Shown: positions 9,704 to 18,853 of the stretch, in pieces | How the letters are laid out: every line of letters starts with the position of its first letter | Numbering within the stretch: the first letter of the stretch is position 1 | Origin: Salinivirgaceae bacterium | GTDB taxonomy: Bacteria; Bacteroidota; Bacteroidia; Bacteroidales; SZUA-534 | Direction of reading: 5' to 3' | Assembly: GCA_016342715.1 (NCBI GenBank) | Contig: JAEINW010000027.1 | Coordinates: 1-34,500, forward strand | DNA: 34,500 nt | Made by a program: the position numbers and the translations under genes | The notes under the pieces: generated by a model | Database searches by the model: none | The model's input: the letters and a program-made list of their open reading frames with translations, nothing else | Told to the model about the DNA's origin: nothing

Positions 9704-11101
9704 ATGAAAAATATATTAAAAATTAACCTACTGTTCTTGCTAACCCTAATTATTAGCAATTCGAGTTGTACAAAACCTAAGGAAACGGTGTATGAATCAT
9801 TCGGTAAAATCAATTATCCGGCTACATCCGACGAACTTGCGATGCTCGACTCCATTCAATACAAAACATTTCTTTATTTTTTAAATGAACACCATCCCGA
9901 AAAAGGTATTGTAAAAGACCGTGCTGCGGCCTGGGCTCCTGCCAGCATTGCAGCAACAGGTTTTGGAATTCCATCCTTCGCCATTGGCGTTGAACGGGAA
10001 TGGATTACGCGTGAGAAGGCTGCAGATATAACACTAAAGATGCTAAGATTTTTCACCAACTCAGTTCAAAGCGCTGATACCAATGTTACTGGTTATAAAG
10101 GATTTTATTATCACTTTTTGCGCATGGATTCAGGTACCCGAGAATGGAAATGCGAACTTTCAACCATCGATACTGGCATTCTAATGATGGGCTTCCTCTT
10201 TGCCCGCAACTATTACAACCTTGATAATGAAACTGAAAAGGAGATTCGTTTATTGACCGATGCTATTCTAGGTAAAATGGAGTGGGATTTTTTCCAATTG
10301 CCTGAAACAGCAAAGCATCCAAATACCATCTCCATGGCCTGGTCGCCTGAAGAAGGATTGCTAGACTACGGTTGGAGCGGTTATAACGAAGGTCTGTTTC
10401 TTTATGTGCTGGCTGCTGGTACCGGAATGAACGATGTTAAAACAAGTTACGATTCATGGTTATCTACCTACAAATGGAACACACCTTACGAAGGCCTTTC
10501 GCACGTTGCTTTTCCTCCATTATTTGGACATCAGTTTTCGCAAGCCTTTATCGATTTTCGTGGATTGGGCGATAAATACATGATGAAAAAAGGAATTGAC
10601 TACTTTGAAAACTCAAGGCGTGCTACCTATGTACAGCGCCAATATGCCATAGAAAACCCAAAAGGTTGGATTGGTTATGATTCGCTCTGCTGGGGAGTAA
10701 CAGCCAGTGACGGATGTGGTGACACATACAATTTCGATGATAAGAAATTTGAGGGTTATGCCGGCAGAGGAACCAGTGGCCCGGATTATACCATCGCAGA
10801 GGACGGAACAATTGCCCCTTATGGTTCAATTTCATCGTTAGCCTTTGCTCCCGAAATAGTTTTTCCAACTATTAGGTCATTAAATGAAAAGTACGGCACA
10901 AAAATTTGGGGCAAATACGGTTATTATGATTCTTTTAATCTTACTGCTAAATGGGTAGATAATGATTTTATAGGTATTGACGAAGGCCCAATGTTAATAA
11001 TGATTGAAAATTTCAGAACAGGACTGGTTTGGAATTACGTGATGAAAGATCCTATAATCCAGAAAGGCTTGAATACACTTGGCTTTGAATATTTAAAATA
11101 A
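9704..11101 (+). CDS. Second GH144-type (PF10091) beta-1,2-glucan-active lipoprotein
   Basis: 465 residues: a hydrophobic signal ending NSSC (probable lipidated Cys22) and then only the (alpha/alpha)6 domain, without the Ig-like domain of the first copy. The family ending is clear (KYGYYDSFNLTAKW, IGIDEGPMLIMIENFRTGLVWN). Where the first GH144 has GADLVET, this one has LSTIDTG, so the Asp is Ser153 and the Glu is Asp156; the later Glu is kept (E229 in GYNEG). A different mode of action is plausible, for example an exo-type sophorose-releasing enzyme as known within GH144, or a related family. It starts a tight run of genes: the next begins 9 bases downstream. Family confident, activity inferred. 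Confidence 0.8.
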   Translation: MKNILKINLLFLLTLIISNSSCTKPKETVYESFGKINYPATSDELAMLDSIQYKTFLYFLNEHHPEKGIVKDRAAAWAPASIAATGFGIPSFAIGVEREWITREKAADITLKMLRFFTNSVQSADTNVTGYKGFYYHFLRMDSGTREWKCELSTIDTGILMMGFLFARNYYNLDNETEKEIRLLTDAILGKMEWDFFQLPETAKHPNTISMAWSPEEGLLDYGWSGYNEGLFLYVLAAGTGMNDVKTSYDSWLSTYKWNTPYEGLSHVAFPPLFGHQFSQAFIDFRGLGDKYMMKKGIDYFENSRRATYVQRQYAIENPKGWIGYDSLCWGVTASDGCGDTYNFDDKKFEGYAGRGTSGPDYTIAEDGTIAPYGSISSLAFAPEIVFPTIRSLNEKYGTKIWGKYGYYDSFNLTAKWVDNDFIGIDEGPMLIMIENFRTGLVWNYVMKDPIIQKGLNTLGFEYLK

Positions 11102-11110
11102 TAATTATTT

Positions 11111-14100
11111 ATGAGAAACATTATCAAATCATCGATAGCAATTTTAATATTGGTTTTAGCTAGCCCTTTGGTTTATACTCAAACTAAAACGCTCGATGAT
11201 TTCGAGAACAAAAACGGATGGTATTTCATCCAATCTGATGGGGTTAAACTGAACCTAAGCAACGAAAAAGGCTTAACCGGTAATGCAATACGTTTCGATT
11301 ATGATTTCACCAAAGGAACCGGTTACGGAGGAATTCAGAAACTTTTCCCCATTGACCTACCCGATAATTACGAATTCACTTTTTATGTTAAGGCCGAATC
11401 TCCTTCAAATAACTTCGAAATAAAATTTATTGACAGCAGTGGTGACAATGTTTGGTGGGTAAGCAATCGAAACTATGACTTTCCTGCGGAATGGAAAAAA
11501 ATCAGCATAAAAAAAAGACATATCCAATTTGCTTGGGGACCCACAAGCGATCAAAATTTAAAACGAATCGACCGGATTGAATTTACCATTGCCTCGTTTG
11601 TAGGTGGTAAAGGAACTATTTGGCTTGATAATTTCAAGTTTGAACCTCTGCCACCTGAAAGCCAAACACACCAACCGCCTTCAATAACGGCTTCGTCATC
11701 TTTAAAAAAACATTTGCCTAATTTTATTGCCGATACCCTAAATGAAACTTATTGGCAAAGTGGTAAAAGCAAGGATCAATATCTTATTATTGACTTTAAA
11801 AACCGTAGAGAATTTGGAGGATTGCAGATTAATTGGCTGGAAAATAATTGTGCCCAGAGTTATGATATCCTTCTTTCGGGCGATGCTAAAAATTGGGAGA
11901 ATGTCTATTCCATTCAATCCAATCAAAGTGATTTCAGTTTTATAAGGTTGCCCGAAGCCGAAACTAGGTATCTTAAGTTAAAGTTTAAAGAAAACAATAA
12001 TACCAGTGGAATTGGCATAAGGGAGATAAGGTTTCTGAATATAAAAGAATCGTTAACAAAAAATGATTTTCTGATTTATAAAGCAAAGAATTCCCGCCAG
12101 GGAAATTATCCCAGATACTTTTCAGAACAAGCTTCGTATTGGACCATTTCCGGTGTAAACAACGATGCTAAGGAAGCCATGATAAACGAAGATGGAATGG
12201 TAGAAGTGGATAAAGGTCTTTTCTCCATCGAACCCATGATAAAAATGGGCGATTCACTTTTTAACTGGCACAATGTTCAATCCGTTCAATCGCTTGGTGA
12301 ACCAGGTCAAAACAAAACTTTTGATTTTACACCAACGCTTACTTGGAATTGCAACAATCTTAAATTCGAAACCTCAGTTACCGCAAGTGGCGAAGCCAAT
12401 AAAAATTCACAGCTTAATGTCCGCTATTCATTCACAAACAACTCGGATCACCCAAAAGATTTTGAATTTTACCTACTAATTCGACCTTACCAAGTTAATC
12501 CATACTACCAGTTTCTGAATTTTACCGGTGGTGCAGGAAAAATAAAATCCATAAAAGAAGAAGATGGCAATTATTTGTCAGTCGATGATAAAGTGGTGCT
12601 GTTTGAAAAAAAATACGATGCCTTTGGCGCAAGTAATTCCAATGAAGGGAATATGGTTGAATTTATCCGTGAAGGTAAGATCCCTGAAAATAAATCAGCC
12701 ACTGATAAAAACGGTATGGCTAATGGTGTTATAAAATACTCATTGCACCTGAATGCCCATGAGAACCTTAAATTATATGTTGCCGTTCCTTTTTATGAAA
12801 AAAATTCAGGGAACACCGCCAGTGCAAATTCTGATATTTCAAAGGAATTTGCTAAATCATCAGAATTCTGGAGCTCAAAAACAGGACACATCAATTTTAA
12901 TTTGCCATCATCGGCTCACCGAATTGTAAATACCTATAAGTCAAATCTGGCCTACATACTTATTAACAGAGACAAAGCAGGCATTCAGCCCGGTTCCCGT
13001 TCGTACGAACGCAGCTGGATACGCGATGGAGCCTTAACTTCGTCTGCCCTTTTGAAATCGGGTATTGTTCCTGAAGTAAAAGAATTTATTAATTGGTACA
13101 CAGGCTTCCAGTACGAAAATGGCAAAGTTCCCTGTGTTGTAGACCTGAGAGGTCCCGATCCGGTTCCTGAAAACGACAGTCATGGAGAATTGATTTACCT
13201 GATTCGTGAATATTTTAACTTCACGCATGATACTGTATTTCTACAAGCAAAAAATGCCTATGTATTAAAATCGGTAGCTTACATTGAATCACTGATTGCC
13301 GAGCGATCAACTGATTATTACAAAAATGGAAACGACAGCGTTCGTGCCTTTTATGGGTTGGTTCCGGAATCAATCAGCCACGAAGGATATTCTGCCAAAC
13401 CCATGCACTCCTATTGGGATAATTTCTTTACCATGAAAGGCTTGAAAGATGCCGCAGAAATTCAAAAAATTCTGGGTGAAAATGAATCCTATGAAAGAAT
13501 TCAAAAAGTTAGCGATACGTTTAAAGACAACCTTTACAATTCGCTTGAACTTGCCATGAAAAATAAAAATATTTCTTACTTGCCCGGGTGTGCTGAGTTA
13601 GGTGATTTTGATGCCACATCAACCACTATAGCATTAAGCCCTTGTAACGAACTAAATAACCTACCCAAACCTCAGGTTTACAACACGTTTGATAAGTATT
13701 ATGAATTCTTTAAAAACCGGCGAGATGATAAAATTGACTGGATTAATTATACGCCTTACGAAAATCGCCTGATTGGTTCATTTATTATTTTAGATCAACC
13801 CGAAAGAGCTCATGAACTGATTGAATTCTTCTTAAACGATCAACGCCCCCAGGGATGGAACCATTGGGCAGAAGTGGTATGGAAAGATTACAGAACTCCC
13901 AAATATATTGGTGATATGCCTCACACCTGGGTTGGCAGTGATTTTATTAATGCCATCCGCTCCATGTTTGTTTACGAAAATGAGTATGATCAATCGCTTG
14001 TTTTGGCATCGGCATTATACCAGGATTGGATTGATGCGCCTCAGGGAATGTCAGTTGAAAATTTGCCTACCTATTATGGTGAAATCTCCTATTCCATAAA

Positions 14101-14293
14101 GAAAGAAGATAGCCATTATCGTTTTTTAATATACGGAGATGTGAAAATTCCGTCGAACGGCATAAAAATAAAAAATTTCAACAGTTCAAGAGTTCCTAAA
14201 AAAGTAACTATAAACTCAAAAGAAATAAAAGACTTTAATGAAAAGGAAATTAGCATTAAGGAGTTTCCGGCAGAAGTAATCATTTACTACTAA
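11111..14293 (+). CDS. Modular secreted protein: CBM-like + F5/8-C (discoidin) + (alpha/alpha)6 domain, unassigned glycosidase
   Basis: 1060 residues with a type I signal peptide (to about residue 23, no lipobox), so probably periplasmic or secreted. Order of parts: a CBM11-like sandwich (about 26-180, LDDFENKNGWYF … GTIWLDNFKF), a discoidin/F5-8-C domain (about 190-310, DTLNETYWQSGKSKDQYLI … GIREIRFLN), a beta-sandwich linker region (about 330-600) and a helical toroid (about 600-1000) with YERSWIRDGALTSS (about 631-645), HGELIYLIREY (about 690), GWNHWAEVVW (about 915) and HTWVGSDFINAIRSM (about 935-950). The toroid resembles inverting (alpha/alpha)6 glycosidases (GH15/GH37/GH63/GH78-like) in general form, but I cannot assign a CAZy family. 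The gene lies between the second GH144 and the sugar symporter, arguing for a step in beta-1,2-glucan breakdown. Catalytic residues are not identified; Asp/Glu in RDGA and HGE are candidates. Confidence 0.75.
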   Translation: MRNIIKSSIAILILVLASPLVYTQTKTLDDFENKNGWYFIQSDGVKLNLSNEKGLTGNAIRFDYDFTKGTGYGGIQKLFPIDLPDNYEFTFYVKAESPSNNFEIKFIDSSGDNVWWVSNRNYDFPAEWKKISIKKRHIQFAWGPTSDQNLKRIDRIEFTIASFVGGKGTIWLDNFKFEPLPPESQTHQPPSITASSSLKKHLPNFIADTLNETYWQSGKSKDQYLIIDFKNRREFGGLQINWLENNCAQSYDILLSGDAKNWENVYSIQSNQSDFSFIRLPEAETRYLKLKFKENNNTSGIGIREIRFLNIKESLTKNDFLIYKAKNSRQGNYPRYFSEQASYWTISGVNNDAKEAMINEDGMVEVDKGLFSIEPMIKMGDSLFNWHNVQSVQSLGEPGQNKTFDFTPTLTWNCNNLKFETSVTASGEANKNSQLNVRYSFTNNSDHPKDFEFYLLIRPYQVNPYYQFLNFTGGAGKIKSIKEEDGNYLSVDDKVVLFEKKYDAFGASNSNEGNMVEFIREGKIPENKSATDKNGMANGVIKYSLHLNAHENLKLYVAVPFYEKNSGNTASANSDISKEFAKSSEFWSSKTGHINFNLPSSAHRIVNTYKSNLAYILINRDKAGIQPGSRSYERSWIRDGALTSSALLKSGIVPEVKEFINWYTGFQYENGKVPCVVDLRGPDPVPENDSHGELIYLIREYFNFTHDTVFLQAKNAYVLKSVAYIESLIAERSTDYYKNGNDSVRAFYGLVPESISHEGYSAKPMHSYWDNFFTMKGLKDAAEIQKILGENESYERIQKVSDTFKDNLYNSLELAMKNKNISYLPGCAELGDFDATSTTIALSPCNELNNLPKPQVYNTFDKYYEFFKNRRDDKIDWINYTPYENRLIGSFIILDQPERAHELIEFFLNDQRPQGWNHWAEVVWKDYRTPKYIGDMPHTWVGSDFINAIRSMFVYENEYDQSLVLASALYQDWIDAPQGMSVENLPTYYGEISYSIKKEDSHYRFLIYGDVKIPSNGIKIKNFNSSRVPKKVTINSKEIKDFNEKEISIKEFPAEVIIYY

Positions 14294-14316: not shown

Positions 14317-16362
14317 ATGAAAGAAATAGTTACTGGTGGCAAGAATATAACTACCGATGATAAAATACCTTTTTCGCAATTAGCAGCTTACGGTGCCGGA
14401 GGCATTATTCCTATTGCCTTGTTCAATGTAGCCGGAATCCTTGTGGGATTGATGGGTAATATAAGCCTTGGATTAAGCGCCTTCTGGCTTGGTGCTATTT
14501 TGATTGTTCCCCGTTTGTGGGATGCCATTTCAGATCCTATCATCGGTCATCTTTCGGATAATACCCGTACCCGCTGGGGACGTCGTCGTCCATACTTACT
14601 GCTTGGTGGAATAGCCGTTGCTCTTTCGTTCGTTGTTATCTGGTGGATACCAAAGGGAGCGCTGGTGCATAGTTGGTTTCCCACCGATTCGGGCTTCCAT
14701 GTGTTTCAGCTTGTGTATATCCTTATTTCCCTGCTTATATTTTTTACCGCTGTAACTGTATTCGAAATTCCTCATGGGGCTTTGGGAATGGAGATGACAA
14801 CCGACTATCACGAGCGAACCCGTCTGTTCAGTGCCAAGAGTTTTGTTGGAAACCTTTTTGCCATGAGCACCCCCTGGCTTTTTGCCCTTGCCAGCATGGA
14901 AATCTTTAAAGGCCCAGGAGGCAATGAAGTGGATGGTATGCGCTATGTATCCATTCTTATTGCTGCTGTTCTTATTCCGCTATCGTTCTGGTGGTTTTTT
15001 AAATTACGTGAACCCGGATTCAAAAAAGTGGCCACTCAGAAAAAAACGCCATTTTGGGAAGACATGAAACACACGGCCAGCAACCGAAATTTTATCATGC
15101 TTACCCTGACCATATTCACACTAGCGATGGGATTTAATTTTGTGAGTTTGATCGGATCATATATTCCTATATTCTTTATTTATGGAGGTGATAAAGTTGC
15201 AGGAGCCACACTATTGGGTATCAATGGTACCATTTGGGCCATCACTGGTGTGCTGGCCGTTTTTCCGCTCAACTGGATAAGTCCAAGGTTGGGTAAACGA
15301 AAAACTCTTACTATCGCTATCTTACTTATGGTTCTGGCACAGGTATCAAAGATTGTATGCTACAATCCAGCCCATCCTTATCTGGTTCTTTTACCCACAA
15401 TTCTGCTTTCAACTGGTATGTTATTTTTCTTTACGCTGGGTTCTTCCATGGTTGGTGATATTTGTGATGAAGATGAATTGAAGACGGGTCATCGCTCAGA
15501 AGGCAGCTTCTATTCCGTCTTTTGGTGGTTTATAAAACTGGGAACCGCACTCGCTAGCCTGGTTGCCGGTGCATTAATCGTATATACTCTGTTCGACGAA
15601 ACACAGGTCACCAAAGTTGACAGTCTGCAAGGCAATATCGGTAAACTTAGGAGTAAGATCGAATACTGGCAAGGCGATGAGGGCCTCAAAGGAACAAGCA
15701 CAACCTTGCTCGAAAATACAAAAGAAACAACTAATGAAGCAATCGATGAATCGAAACTATATTTAGTCGTCCTAGAAAAGGAAATTGTTAAAAAACAGAA
15801 CGAAACCTATCAAAACATTACCAAATACAAAACCCAGAGGAATGAAAAGCTTTCAGAGGCTATTTCAGTAACAAAATCCATCATAGCCGATTTGGAAAAA
15901 TTTAATCTTCAATTAGTCAACACAAATGCATCCACAGAAGATTCTTTAACTAAAAGAATTAGAACCGCTGCTATTCCCCTGTTCCTTAAACAAGACCTTG
16001 TAAAAGCAAGGCTGAATTCGTTTGAACTCTTGTCGCACCTTGAAGGACAATCTCTTAAAACAAAGAAAAGCAAGGAACACTATATAAAAATTCTTGAAAA
16101 CAGTGGAGGTGTTGATATTAGGCTTGCAAACATAAACACATATATGCCTTTAGAATTTCTTGATAATGAATTAAATACCATTGAAACTGAAATTGTGCAG
16201 CTCACCCAGCAATCGCCTTATACGCTATTAATGATGCGAGTGGTTGAGATTGGACTGCCTTTGTTTTTAAGTATTTTTTCAATATTCTTTATCATGAGGT
16301 ACAAACTCACAGAGAAGCGATCGCACGAAATCAAGAAGCTTCTTGAGCAAAAAAATCTCTAA
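14317..16362 (+). CDS. GPH-family sugar:cation symporter with large extra periplasmic segment
   Basis: Inner-membrane importer of the glycoside-pentoside-hexuronide branch of the major facilitator superfamily. The family signature is strong: LWDAISDPIIGHLSDNTRTR followed by WGRRRPYLL (about residues 68-95), then HGALGMEMTTDYHERTRL (about 153-170) and GDICDEDELKTGHRSEGSFY (about 378-397). GPH proteins are usually 450-500 residues; this one has 681. The surplus is a charged, helix-rich, coiled-coil-like insert (about 428-632) between the penultimate (FWWFIKLGTALASLVAGALI) and last (VVEIGLPLFLSIFSIFFIM) membrane segments. With the usual 12-helix, N-in topology the insert faces the periplasm. It probably imports beta-1,2-gluco-oligosaccharides for the GH94 and GH35 enzymes encoded just downstream. 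Confidence 0.88.
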   Translation: MKEIVTGGKNITTDDKIPFSQLAAYGAGGIIPIALFNVAGILVGLMGNISLGLSAFWLGAILIVPRLWDAISDPIIGHLSDNTRTRWGRRRPYLLLGGIAVALSFVVIWWIPKGALVHSWFPTDSGFHVFQLVYILISLLIFFTAVTVFEIPHGALGMEMTTDYHERTRLFSAKSFVGNLFAMSTPWLFALASMEIFKGPGGNEVDGMRYVSILIAAVLIPLSFWWFFKLREPGFKKVATQKKTPFWEDMKHTASNRNFIMLTLTIFTLAMGFNFVSLIGSYIPIFFIYGGDKVAGATLLGINGTIWAITGVLAVFPLNWISPRLGKRKTLTIAILLMVLAQVSKIVCYNPAHPYLVLLPTILLSTGMLFFFTLGSSMVGDICDEDELKTGHRSEGSFYSVFWWFIKLGTALASLVAGALIVYTLFDETQVTKVDSLQGNIGKLRSKIEYWQGDEGLKGTSTTLLENTKETTNEAIDESKLYLVVLEKEIVKKQNETYQNITKYKTQRNEKLSEAISVTKSIIADLEKFNLQLVNTNASTEDSLTKRIRTAAIPLFLKQDLVKARLNSFELLSHLEGQSLKTKKSKEHYIKILENSGGVDIRLANINTYMPLEFLDNELNTIETEIVQLTQQSPYTLLMMRVVEIGLPLFLSIFSIFFIMRYKLTEKRSHEIKKLLEQKNL

Positions 16363-16420: not shown

Positions 16421-18853
16421 ATGACATTTAGCATCAAAGAAAATAATTTTTACCTTAACAATAAAAAGGTATTTCTTAATTCAGGGGAAATCCACTATTT
16501 CAGAATCAAGCGTGAACTTTGGGATAAGCACCTTGAAGCAGCAAAGGAAGCCGGACTTACGACCATAAGCACCTATGTTCCATGGGCATTTCACGAATCG
16601 GTGGAGGGTGTTTTCGATTTTGATGGTACGTCGTGTCCTGAACGGGATCTGAAAGGATGGCTTAGTCGTTGTCAAGCCCACGGATTGCATTGCATTGTAA
16701 AACCGGGACCTTTTATCCTTGCTGAATATCGGGGAGCAGGATTGCCCGATTGGTTCATGGAACAATATGGCAGCGAAGTTAAGATGCGCAATAGCAAAGG
16801 TGAAATTGTCCCAAGTGAGGGGGTCAGCCTGTTTAATCAAAAATATCTGGAGAAAGTAACACTTTGGTACGATAACATCATGCCATTTATAAGCCAACGC
16901 CAACTATCAAACGATGGACCAATTATCATGATGCAGATATGTAATGAGATAGGTGTATTCCCATGGTTGGCGCATCAGGGAGATTACAACAATAATGTTA
17001 AGGATCGGTTCATTGTCTATTTATCGAAAAAATTTTCCGACCTTAAAGAACTGAACAGCCTTTGGGGAACCAATTATTCTGATTTTTCTCATGTTGAACT
17101 TCCTCCCGATGGAAAGCTTCCTTATGCATCAAAACAAGATCGTGGTCGCGATTATGAATGGCACATGTTCTGGAGAACTTACTACGGTGATTACTTAAAG
17201 ATGCTTACTGCTATGGCTCGGGAACGCGGAGTTAGCGTGCCATTATATCATAACCTTCCGGGCTGGATTTATGGTAGTGGTTATGAGTTTCCAGTGAATA
17301 TCACCATGTATGAAGATTTGTTCGAAGATAAGAGTGATATTATTTTTGGAGTCGATCATATTCCTGAATTTATGTCGTATCGTAACATGCACGACGATAG
17401 GATTATAAACGATATTACTTATGCCATGCAGGGCAATAAACCGCTGTTTGCCGCTGAATTCCAGAGTGGCTCACGCGAGTATCATGTGGTAACCAATCCG
17501 CGCGAAATGGAACTCTTTTACAAAGCGAGTGTTGCCAATGGACTTACCGGCTGGAATTATTATATGTTTTCGCAGGGACGCAATACAAGACACACCGGAT
17601 ATTCCGGCTCAACATTTTACTGGTTTAACCCGCTTACGCCCGAAGGCGAGCGCACCAGTGCTTACCCGCTGGTGAAACGGATGAATAAAATCATTAAAAC
17701 CTCCGAAAGCCTTATTGTTGATGCAAAACGTAAAGCAGAGGTATGTGTTCTTTTCTATCCTCCGTATTATGCCACAGAACTGGAACGTCCTGTTTCAGGA
17801 GCATGTGAACTTCAGTTCTCGGCTTCTGCCATTCGGAGACCTGCCTATTTCGACGGCTTATTAAAGGTTTTACAAATCCTTAATATCGACTACAATATGA
17901 TGGACTTAAGCAAGACTACGGCAGATAAATTGCAACACTACAAACAGGTCTGGGCCTTTAGTACCGATGAAATGAATGCTGCCGACCAACAAACCATTGT
18001 TAATTATACAAACGCAGGAGGTAGTATGGTAATTTTTCCATATCTCCCCGATCGCGAAATGTCGCAAAAACCCTGCACAATCATTCGCGATGCCCTTTCA
18101 ATACATCCATCGGGGAGTGAAATCATCGATTCTCCACTAATAGATGTTTATGACCTTAAGGATATCAAATGTGCCAATCCGCAAAGTATTTTTTCAGAAG
18201 AATCATTAGTTGATGCCGAAATAATTGCACGCAACATAAATGGTTCTGCTTGTGGGTTCACAAAAAAACTTGGAAATGGGTCGCTAACACATCTTGGAAC
18301 CTGGATTGGATTCGACACCGAAGGACAAAAACCGGTTTATGAAGCACTGCTAAACCAATCATCTGCAAAACTTCGACAGGCATCAACCAACAACGAAAAT
18401 ATTGCTGTACGCGAACGCTTCACAAGTGAGCAGGCTGCTGTGCTTTTTGTTGCCAATTACTACAACGAAGAACAAACATGCAACGCTAGTTATACACATC
18501 CTGAAACAGAAGAAACAATCAGCATACCCTATTCACAAGATGTGATGCTCATGCCGGCTTTATACGCCATTTTAACTCCGGTGTGTATGAAAGTTGCCCC
18601 CGGATTAAAAATTTTACACAGCACTTCTGACCTTCTAAATATTGAAGAAAAAAATGGACAACTTATCATTACTCTTTATGGAGATCGCGATCTCCCTGGA
18701 GAAATAGTTTTTGAAGGTACTGAAGTACAAAAAATTAGTACTGCAATAATGGATGGAGAAAACCTGAAAATTCAACACATCAAAAAAAATGTGGTTGTTG
18801 CATATACCCACAAACATAAAGTTGAAATGACTCTAAATGTATCTATTGGCTAA
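16421..18853 (+). CDS. GH35-family cytosolic enzyme, possible beta-1,2-glucosyltransferase
   Basis: 810 residues with no signal peptide, so cytosolic. The N-terminal TIM barrel is GH35: it opens VFLNSGEIHYFRIKRELW, has ISTYVPWAFHESVEGVFDF, the acid/base segment MQICNEIG (Glu176) and the nucleophile segment FAAEFQSGS (Glu346). After the barrel (about 430-600) comes a Rossmann-like segment (VCVLFYPPYYATE … GGSMVIFPYLP), then small beta domains. GH35 members are mostly beta-galactosidases, but a GH35 enzyme from Ignavibacterium album is an established transglycosylase acting on beta-1,2-gluco-oligosaccharides, and this gene sits between a sugar importer and a GH94 phosphorylase. A beta-1,2-glucosyltransferase or glucosidase is therefore as likely as a galactosidase. 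It lies in the same tight gene run (58 and 30 bases to neighbours). Confidence 0.82.
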   Translation: MTFSIKENNFYLNNKKVFLNSGEIHYFRIKRELWDKHLEAAKEAGLTTISTYVPWAFHESVEGVFDFDGTSCPERDLKGWLSRCQAHGLHCIVKPGPFILAEYRGAGLPDWFMEQYGSEVKMRNSKGEIVPSEGVSLFNQKYLEKVTLWYDNIMPFISQRQLSNDGPIIMMQICNEIGVFPWLAHQGDYNNNVKDRFIVYLSKKFSDLKELNSLWGTNYSDFSHVELPPDGKLPYASKQDRGRDYEWHMFWRTYYGDYLKMLTAMARERGVSVPLYHNLPGWIYGSGYEFPVNITMYEDLFEDKSDIIFGVDHIPEFMSYRNMHDDRIINDITYAMQGNKPLFAAEFQSGSREYHVVTNPREMELFYKASVANGLTGWNYYMFSQGRNTRHTGYSGSTFYWFNPLTPEGERTSAYPLVKRMNKIIKTSESLIVDAKRKAEVCVLFYPPYYATELERPVSGACELQFSASAIRRPAYFDGLLKVLQILNIDYNMMDLSKTTADKLQHYKQVWAFSTDEMNAADQQTIVNYTNAGGSMVIFPYLPDREMSQKPCTIIRDALSIHPSGSEIIDSPLIDVYDLKDIKCANPQSIFSEESLVDAEIIARNINGSACGFTKKLGNGSLTHLGTWIGFDTEGQKPVYEALLNQSSAKLRQASTNNENIAVRERFTSEQAAVLFVANYYNEEQTCNASYTHPETEETISIPYSQDVMLMPALYAILTPVCMKVAPGLKILHSTSDLLNIEEKNGQLIITLYGDRDLPGEIVFEGTEVQKISTAIMDGENLKIQHIKKNVVVAYTHKHKVEMTLNVSIG

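What the first reader, a model, noticed from the sequence alone, without database searches (positions are those of the whole stretch)
15599..16220. GPH symporter with about 200 extra residues between its last two membrane helices
GPH carriers are normally 450-500 residues. Here a charged, coiled-coil-like segment (about residues 428-632) sits in the loop that standard topology places in the periplasm. It could capture oligosaccharides, dock a periplasmic enzyme of the locus, or mediate oligomerisation. Reading frame and flanking helices are intact, so it is not an assembly artefact.
Basis: partly seen in the sequence, partly recalled or inferred. Interest (0 to 1): 0.7.

Follow-up and report, generated by a model that had tools for sequence, protein, structure and literature searches.

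The report
Sugar symporter with periplasmic helical domain
A sugar importer in a beta-1,2-glucan degradation gene cluster carries an extra bundle of helices on the outer side of the membrane; close relatives of this importer almost all carry it and sit in the same kind of cluster, so it marks a specialised transporter subfamily whose extra part has no known function yet.

Summary
The ORF at 14317-16362 (681 aa) is a MelB-type GPH symporter with an extra ~205 residues (428-632) between TM11 and TM12, on the periplasmic side. More than 60 related genes share it, so it is not an artefact. The predicted structure is a six-helix bundle rather than one long coiled coil. GPH relatives without it have 11-14 residues there; carriers have 114-126 or 175-235, nothing in between. 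Carriers form one supported clade, and 62 of 63 loci fetched by similarity lie beside beta-1,2-glucan genes (GH144, a 1060-aa protein, GH35, SOGP). In a 295-genome survey of the order, all 16 carrier genomes also encode SOGP (18 do). Cation and sugar residues of MelB are kept. Several lineages lack an inner helical hairpin (~96 aa), so the indispensable part is small and membrane-proximal, where conservation is highest. The insert evolves fast, has one Trp, matches no known domain, and co-varies with periplasmic enzymes no more than with cytosolic ones; two genomes keep it with no detectable 1060-aa protein. I favour a cap/vestibule domain tuning oligosaccharide entry or the periplasmic gate; enzyme docking and oligomerisation remain open. 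New variant of a known kind.

The parts
14317..16362 (+). GPH (MFS_2) sugar:cation symporter gene, 681 aa
14371..15585 (+). TM1-TM11 core (residues 19-423), MelB-like fold
   Evidence: model; MelB Z 37.5, 444 aligned residues
15598..16212 (+). periplasmic insert (residues 428-632): six-helix bundle, helices 428-452, 461-491, 504-535, 541-581, 586-605, 612-630
15679..15966 (+). inner part of the insert (about residues 455-550; helices 2 and 3 plus start of helix 4), absent in the short class of relatives
16216..16296 (+). TM12 (residues 634-660)
9704..11101 (+). GH144-type (PF10091) protein with lipoprotein-like N-terminus, conserved operon neighbour
11111..14293 (+). 1060-aa protein with signal-peptide-like N-terminus and F5/8C domain, conserved upstream neighbour
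16421..18853 (+). GH35 protein, no signal peptide apparent; same GH family as the beta-1,2-glucooligosaccharide glycosyltransferase IaSGT of Ignavibacterium (PMC8861115)
18884..22231 (+). SOGP-type phosphorylase (PF21958, PF21250, GH94-like), conserved downstream neighbour

Best explanation
The gene encodes a MelB-type sugar:cation symporter that most likely carries beta-1,2-glucooligosaccharides from the periplasm to the cytosolic SOGP and GH35 enzymes of its operon. A helical-bundle domain was probably gained once in the short periplasmic loop between TM11 and TM12 and is kept in this subfamily. The domain most likely works close to the membrane, as a cap or vestibule wall beside the periplasmic mouth of the C-terminal half, tuning entry or gating for these oligosaccharides. 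Its outer and inner hairpin parts tolerate change and even removal. Shown by computation: the insert, its clade and its locus specificity. Predicted: the fold and topology. Inferred: the substrate and the cap/gate role (the role itself about 0.35).
For: Core: MFS_2 match; MelB structures are the best match, Z 37.5 over 444 residues. D69/D73, E150 and K407 align with MelB D55/D59, D124 and K377 and are invariant in 67-68 of 68 carriers, whereas E150 is S/A/N in nearly all insert-free relatives. Locus: 62 of 63 fetched loci have GH144/1060-aa/GH35/SOGP neighbours; 16 of 16 carrier genomes also have SOGP among 295 genomes, p about 1e-24. Single clade of all carriers in the core tree, local support 0.997. 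Bimodal scores: carriers at least 865 bits, the nearest insert-free gene 410 bits, others 300 or below. Fold: six helices, pLDDT 86.6. Membrane-proximal thirds of five of six helices are more conserved than the distal thirds; F426, Q430, D435, H588 and Q632 are invariant. The short class lacks the inner hairpin.
Against: No direct test of function. The conservation gradient can also reflect only the need to anchor the domain to the membrane helices. Helix height above the membrane was assigned from helix order, not measured on coordinates. The model rests on 56 sequences and its contacts with the core could not be inspected. Substrate is inferred from the locus; no transport data were found. 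An insert-free sister GPH (L056, 497 aa) sits next to a carrier in the same Planctomycetota beta-1,2-glucan cluster, so the insert may not be needed for that substrate.
Confidence: 0.4

Rival explanations
1. Docking platform: the bundle recruits a periplasmic enzyme (GH144 lipoprotein, 1060-aa protein or GH3) so that products are released at the transporter, as proposed for the trypsin-binding extracellular domain inserted in mammalian PepT1/PepT2.
For: Tight operon linkage with exported enzymes. Precedent: the PepT1/2 domain is inserted in an MFS loop, binds trypsin and is dispensable for transport (PMC4597091). The insert diverges fast.
Against: No 1060-aa homologue found in the genomes of L029 and L062 that keep the insert (draft assemblies). 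Partial correlation of insert distances with GH144b (0.07) and the 1060-aa protein (0.09) is no higher than with cytosolic GH35 (0.26) and SOGP (0.12). The most conserved residues are at the membrane end, not the tip.
Confidence: 0.2
2. Tethered capture domain: the bundle binds beta-1,2-glucooligosaccharides and hands them to the carrier, replacing the solute-binding protein of the ABC system found in the Ignavibacterium cluster.
For: Analogous clusters in Ignavibacterium and Listeria use an ABC transporter with a Sop-binding protein (PMC8861115); none of the window's scanned operon genes is an ABC component. H588 is invariant and Y589, Y482 nearly so.
Against: Only 1 Trp and 13 F/W/Y/H in 205 residues, no Trp in the short forms counted; no match to binding-protein folds; weak conservation.
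Confidence: 0.12
3. Oligomerisation or assembly/stability module: the bundle joins symporter copies or stabilises TM11-TM12.
For: Charged, moderately amphipathic helices as in bundles; partial PDB matches are generic helical bundles.
Against: MelB and other insert-free GPH carriers need no such module (general knowledge); no test of oligomeric state was possible.
Confidence: 0.18
4. Near-neutral passenger: a domain acquired once and kept with little function of its own.
For: Rapid divergence (mean log distance 1.03 versus 0.18 for the core); more than one change between long and short forms.
Against: No member of the carrier clade has lost the insert entirely among 68 aligned carriers, and junction residues and H588 are invariant.
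Confidence: 0.1

Closest known systems
MelB melibiose permease (GPH family, TC 2.A.2)
   Same: 12-TM fold (Z 37.5), aligned cation-site aspartates, acidic sugar-site residue and TM11 lysine
   Different: Short TM11-TM12 loop; no periplasmic domain
Insert-free GPH sister in L056 (Planctomycetota, 497 aa)
   Same: Nearest insert-free relative (410 bits, 43% identity) and in the same beta-1,2-glucan cluster
   Different: 13 residues where carriers have 114-235
PepT1/PepT2 extracellular domain (SLC15, MFS)
   Same: A folded domain inserted in an outward loop of an MFS symporter (PMC4597091)
   Different: Different loop (TM9-TM10, general knowledge), Ig-like folds instead of a helical bundle, different transporter family
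Ignavibacterium album beta-1,2-glucan cluster (IALB_1177-1187)
   Same: GH144, SOGP-like and GH35 genes together (PMC8861115)
   Different: Uses an ABC transporter with a binding protein, not a GPH symporter

Membership tests
GPH / MFS_2 symporters (MelB type) | Pfam MFS_2 above its cut-off | tested here: met
   230.8 bits against cut-off 27
GPH / MFS_2 symporters (MelB type) | NCBIfam TIGR00792 (gph) above its cut-off | tested here: not met
   168.4 bits against cut-off 231.35; best family but below its curated score, the match ending at the insert
GPH / MFS_2 symporters (MelB type) | 12-helix MFS fold with MelB as best structural match | tested here: met
   Z 37.5, 3.8 A, 444 aligned residues
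GPH / MFS_2 symporters (MelB type) | Cation-site aspartates and acidic sugar-site residue | tested here: met
   D69/D73 and E150 align with MelB D55/D59 and D124, invariant or nearly so in carriers
GPH / MFS_2 symporters (MelB type) | Cation-coupled sugar transport | not testable with these tools
   No transport data
Beta-1,2-glucan utilisation locus | Co-located GH144-type and SOGP-type genes | tested here: met
   PF10091 and PF21958/PF21250 in the window; conserved in relatives
Known domain family for the insert | Significant match to a Pfam family or PDB sequence | tested here: not met
   No Pfam family matches more than 3 of 35 members; best PDB E 0.16
Known fold for the insert | Structural match clearly above generic helical bundles | tested here: inconclusive
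   Best Foldseek E 0.05; best Z 9.7 over part of the domain

The most novel reading that the evidence does not exclude
An uncharacterised periplasmic helical domain, acquired once inside a GPH symporter, adapts this carrier class to importing oligosaccharides larger than the usual mono- and disaccharides, acting as an integral substitute for the binding protein of ABC systems.
Probability: 0.2. Interest if true: 0.75.

Novelty: new variant of a known kind. Interest (0 to 1): 0.5.

Why it matters
Inner-membrane import in beta-1,2-glucan utilisation by Bacteroidota is unstudied as far as the searches here show. A clade-wide domain in a canonical carrier, with natural short and long forms and an insert-free sister, makes it directly testable how an MFS symporter is adapted to a particular oligosaccharide, and gives a sequence marker for beta-1,2-glucan transporters.

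Tried and rejected
Assembly artefact or frameshift: rejected, more than 60 homologues from independent assemblies. Known domain in the insert: no sequence match; Foldseek and VIA-align gave only generic helical bundles. A free-standing copy of the domain: one weak class-wide hit (E 1.6e-6, 220-aa frame in G095), judged likely chance helical similarity and not pursued. Exchange of the insert between lineages: the shared part of the insert groups the short forms (97/75) while the core protein tree rejects one short clade (p 0.008), but the DNA trees are less decisive (p 0.003 and 0.10) and L040/L062/L046 are close along the whole gene, so I claim only about three length changes (up to 5 on the protein tree). 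Co-evolution with the 1060-aa or GH144 protein beyond the operon background: not seen. The two SOGP genomes without the carrier (G612, G624): in both the SOGP contig ends near the cluster, so absence is uncertain. Literature searches found no description of this insert, but the library lacks most subscription journals.

Full report
The reading frame at 14317-16362 encodes 681 residues. Pfam names it MFS_2 with E 2.9e-68, but the match stops at residue 432 of the protein, profile position 392 of 427. AlphaFold2 on an alignment of 56 relatives puts TM11 at 395-423 and TM12 at 634-660, with six helices between. Loop charges fit cytoplasmic termini and a periplasmic TM11-TM12 loop. The full model matches MelB crystal structures with Z 37.5 over 444 residues, so TM12 is regained after the insert.

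The insert is shared. A scan of genome contigs gave 63 relatives. In an alignment of 100 GPH proteins, residues 424-634 correspond to 11-14 residues in 32 insert-free members, 114-126 in 10 short-form members and 175-235 in 58 long-form members (the 175 is L033, a truncated gene), with nothing between 14 and 114. Carriers form one clade in a tree of the membrane core alone (local support 0.997), next to an insert-free 497-aa protein found beside a carrier in a Planctomycetota contig. In surveys of the order and the phylum, carriers scored 987 bits or more and other GPHs 300 or less; the Planctomycetota carrier scores 865 and its insert-free neighbour 410.

The insert tracks the beta-1,2-glucan locus. 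Of the 63 loci, 62 carry at least one of GH144a, GH144b, the 1060-aa gene, GH35 or SOGP. These loci were found by similarity to the carrier, so an independent survey is more telling: among 295 genomes of the order, 16 have a carrier and 18 have SOGP, and all 16 carrier genomes are among the 18 (Fisher p about 1.5e-24; genomes share ancestry, so this p is only indicative). The contigs of the two remaining SOGP genes end close to the cluster. Insert-free GPHs whose neighbourhoods were fetched show no such cluster, apart from the L056 sister. The GH35 neighbour belongs to the GH family of IaSGT, a glycosyltransferase on beta-1,2-glucooligosaccharides whose cluster uses an ABC transporter (PMC8861115).

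The carrier looks competent for transport. D69 and D73 align with MelB D55 and D59, E150 with D124, and K407 with K377; they are invariant or nearly so in carriers, and E150 is replaced by S, A or N in nearly all insert-free relatives surveyed. The roles of these MelB residues are from general knowledge.

The insert folded alone is a confident six-helix bundle (pLDDT 86.6, pTM 0.83) without a sequence relative and with only generic bundle matches. It diverges much faster than the core (mean log distance 1.03 against 0.18). Conservation in five of six helices is highest in the third nearest the membrane, as judged from helix order. F426, Q430, D435, H588 and Q632 are invariant. The short class lacks about 96 residues, roughly helices 2 and 3, so a smaller bundle suffices. 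The short form arose, or the long form was lost, more than once: one short clade is rejected on protein (p 0.008) and on first and second codon positions (p 0.003), though not on all positions (p 0.10).

Function. The 1060-aa protein is an unlikely obligatory partner: no homologue at E 1e-10 in the genomes of L029 and L062, which keep the insert (draft genomes). Once the core and the other genes are accounted for, insert distances correlate with GH144b (0.07) and the 1060-aa protein (0.09) no more than with cytosolic GH35 (0.26) and SOGP (0.12). Low aromatic content speaks against a classic sugar platform. I therefore favour a membrane-proximal cap or gate element, at about 0.35 for the role itself, with docking in the manner of PepT1/2 (PMC4597091), oligomerisation and capture as rivals.

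In short: a real, clade-defining periplasmic domain in a known carrier family, tied to one kind of locus; a new variant of a known kind, with its function open.

Noticed in passing
L086-L090, L092, L093, L097: GPH carriers of 782-846 aa in class Bacteroidia with extra C-terminal residues after TM12; three of them (L086, L090, L097) were scanned and end in a GH17 match.
   Followed up: partly
L056 2107-5593 (also L169): Planctomycetota contig with an insert-free and an insert-bearing GPH side by side and divergent in a beta-1,2-glucan cluster.
   Followed up: partly
L033 3990-5909: Carrier gene on a 6-kb contig labelled Thiodictyon, truncated before TM12, next to a sulfatase-like frame and without beta-1,2-glucan neighbours; possibly a chimeric contig or a decayed copy.
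   Followed up: partly
L055 988-2951: Carrier gene split into two frames (404 and 321 aa) on a 3-kb contig.
   Followed up: no
L029, L031: Carrier and beta-1,2-glucan operon at 67-68% identity in contigs labelled Limisphaerales (Verrucomicrobiota): transfer or mis-binning.
   Followed up: no
window 11111-14293: 1060-aa protein with an F5/8C domain and a weak match to an oligosaccharide amylase model; found in 55 of 63 loci, no assigned activity.
   Followed up: partly
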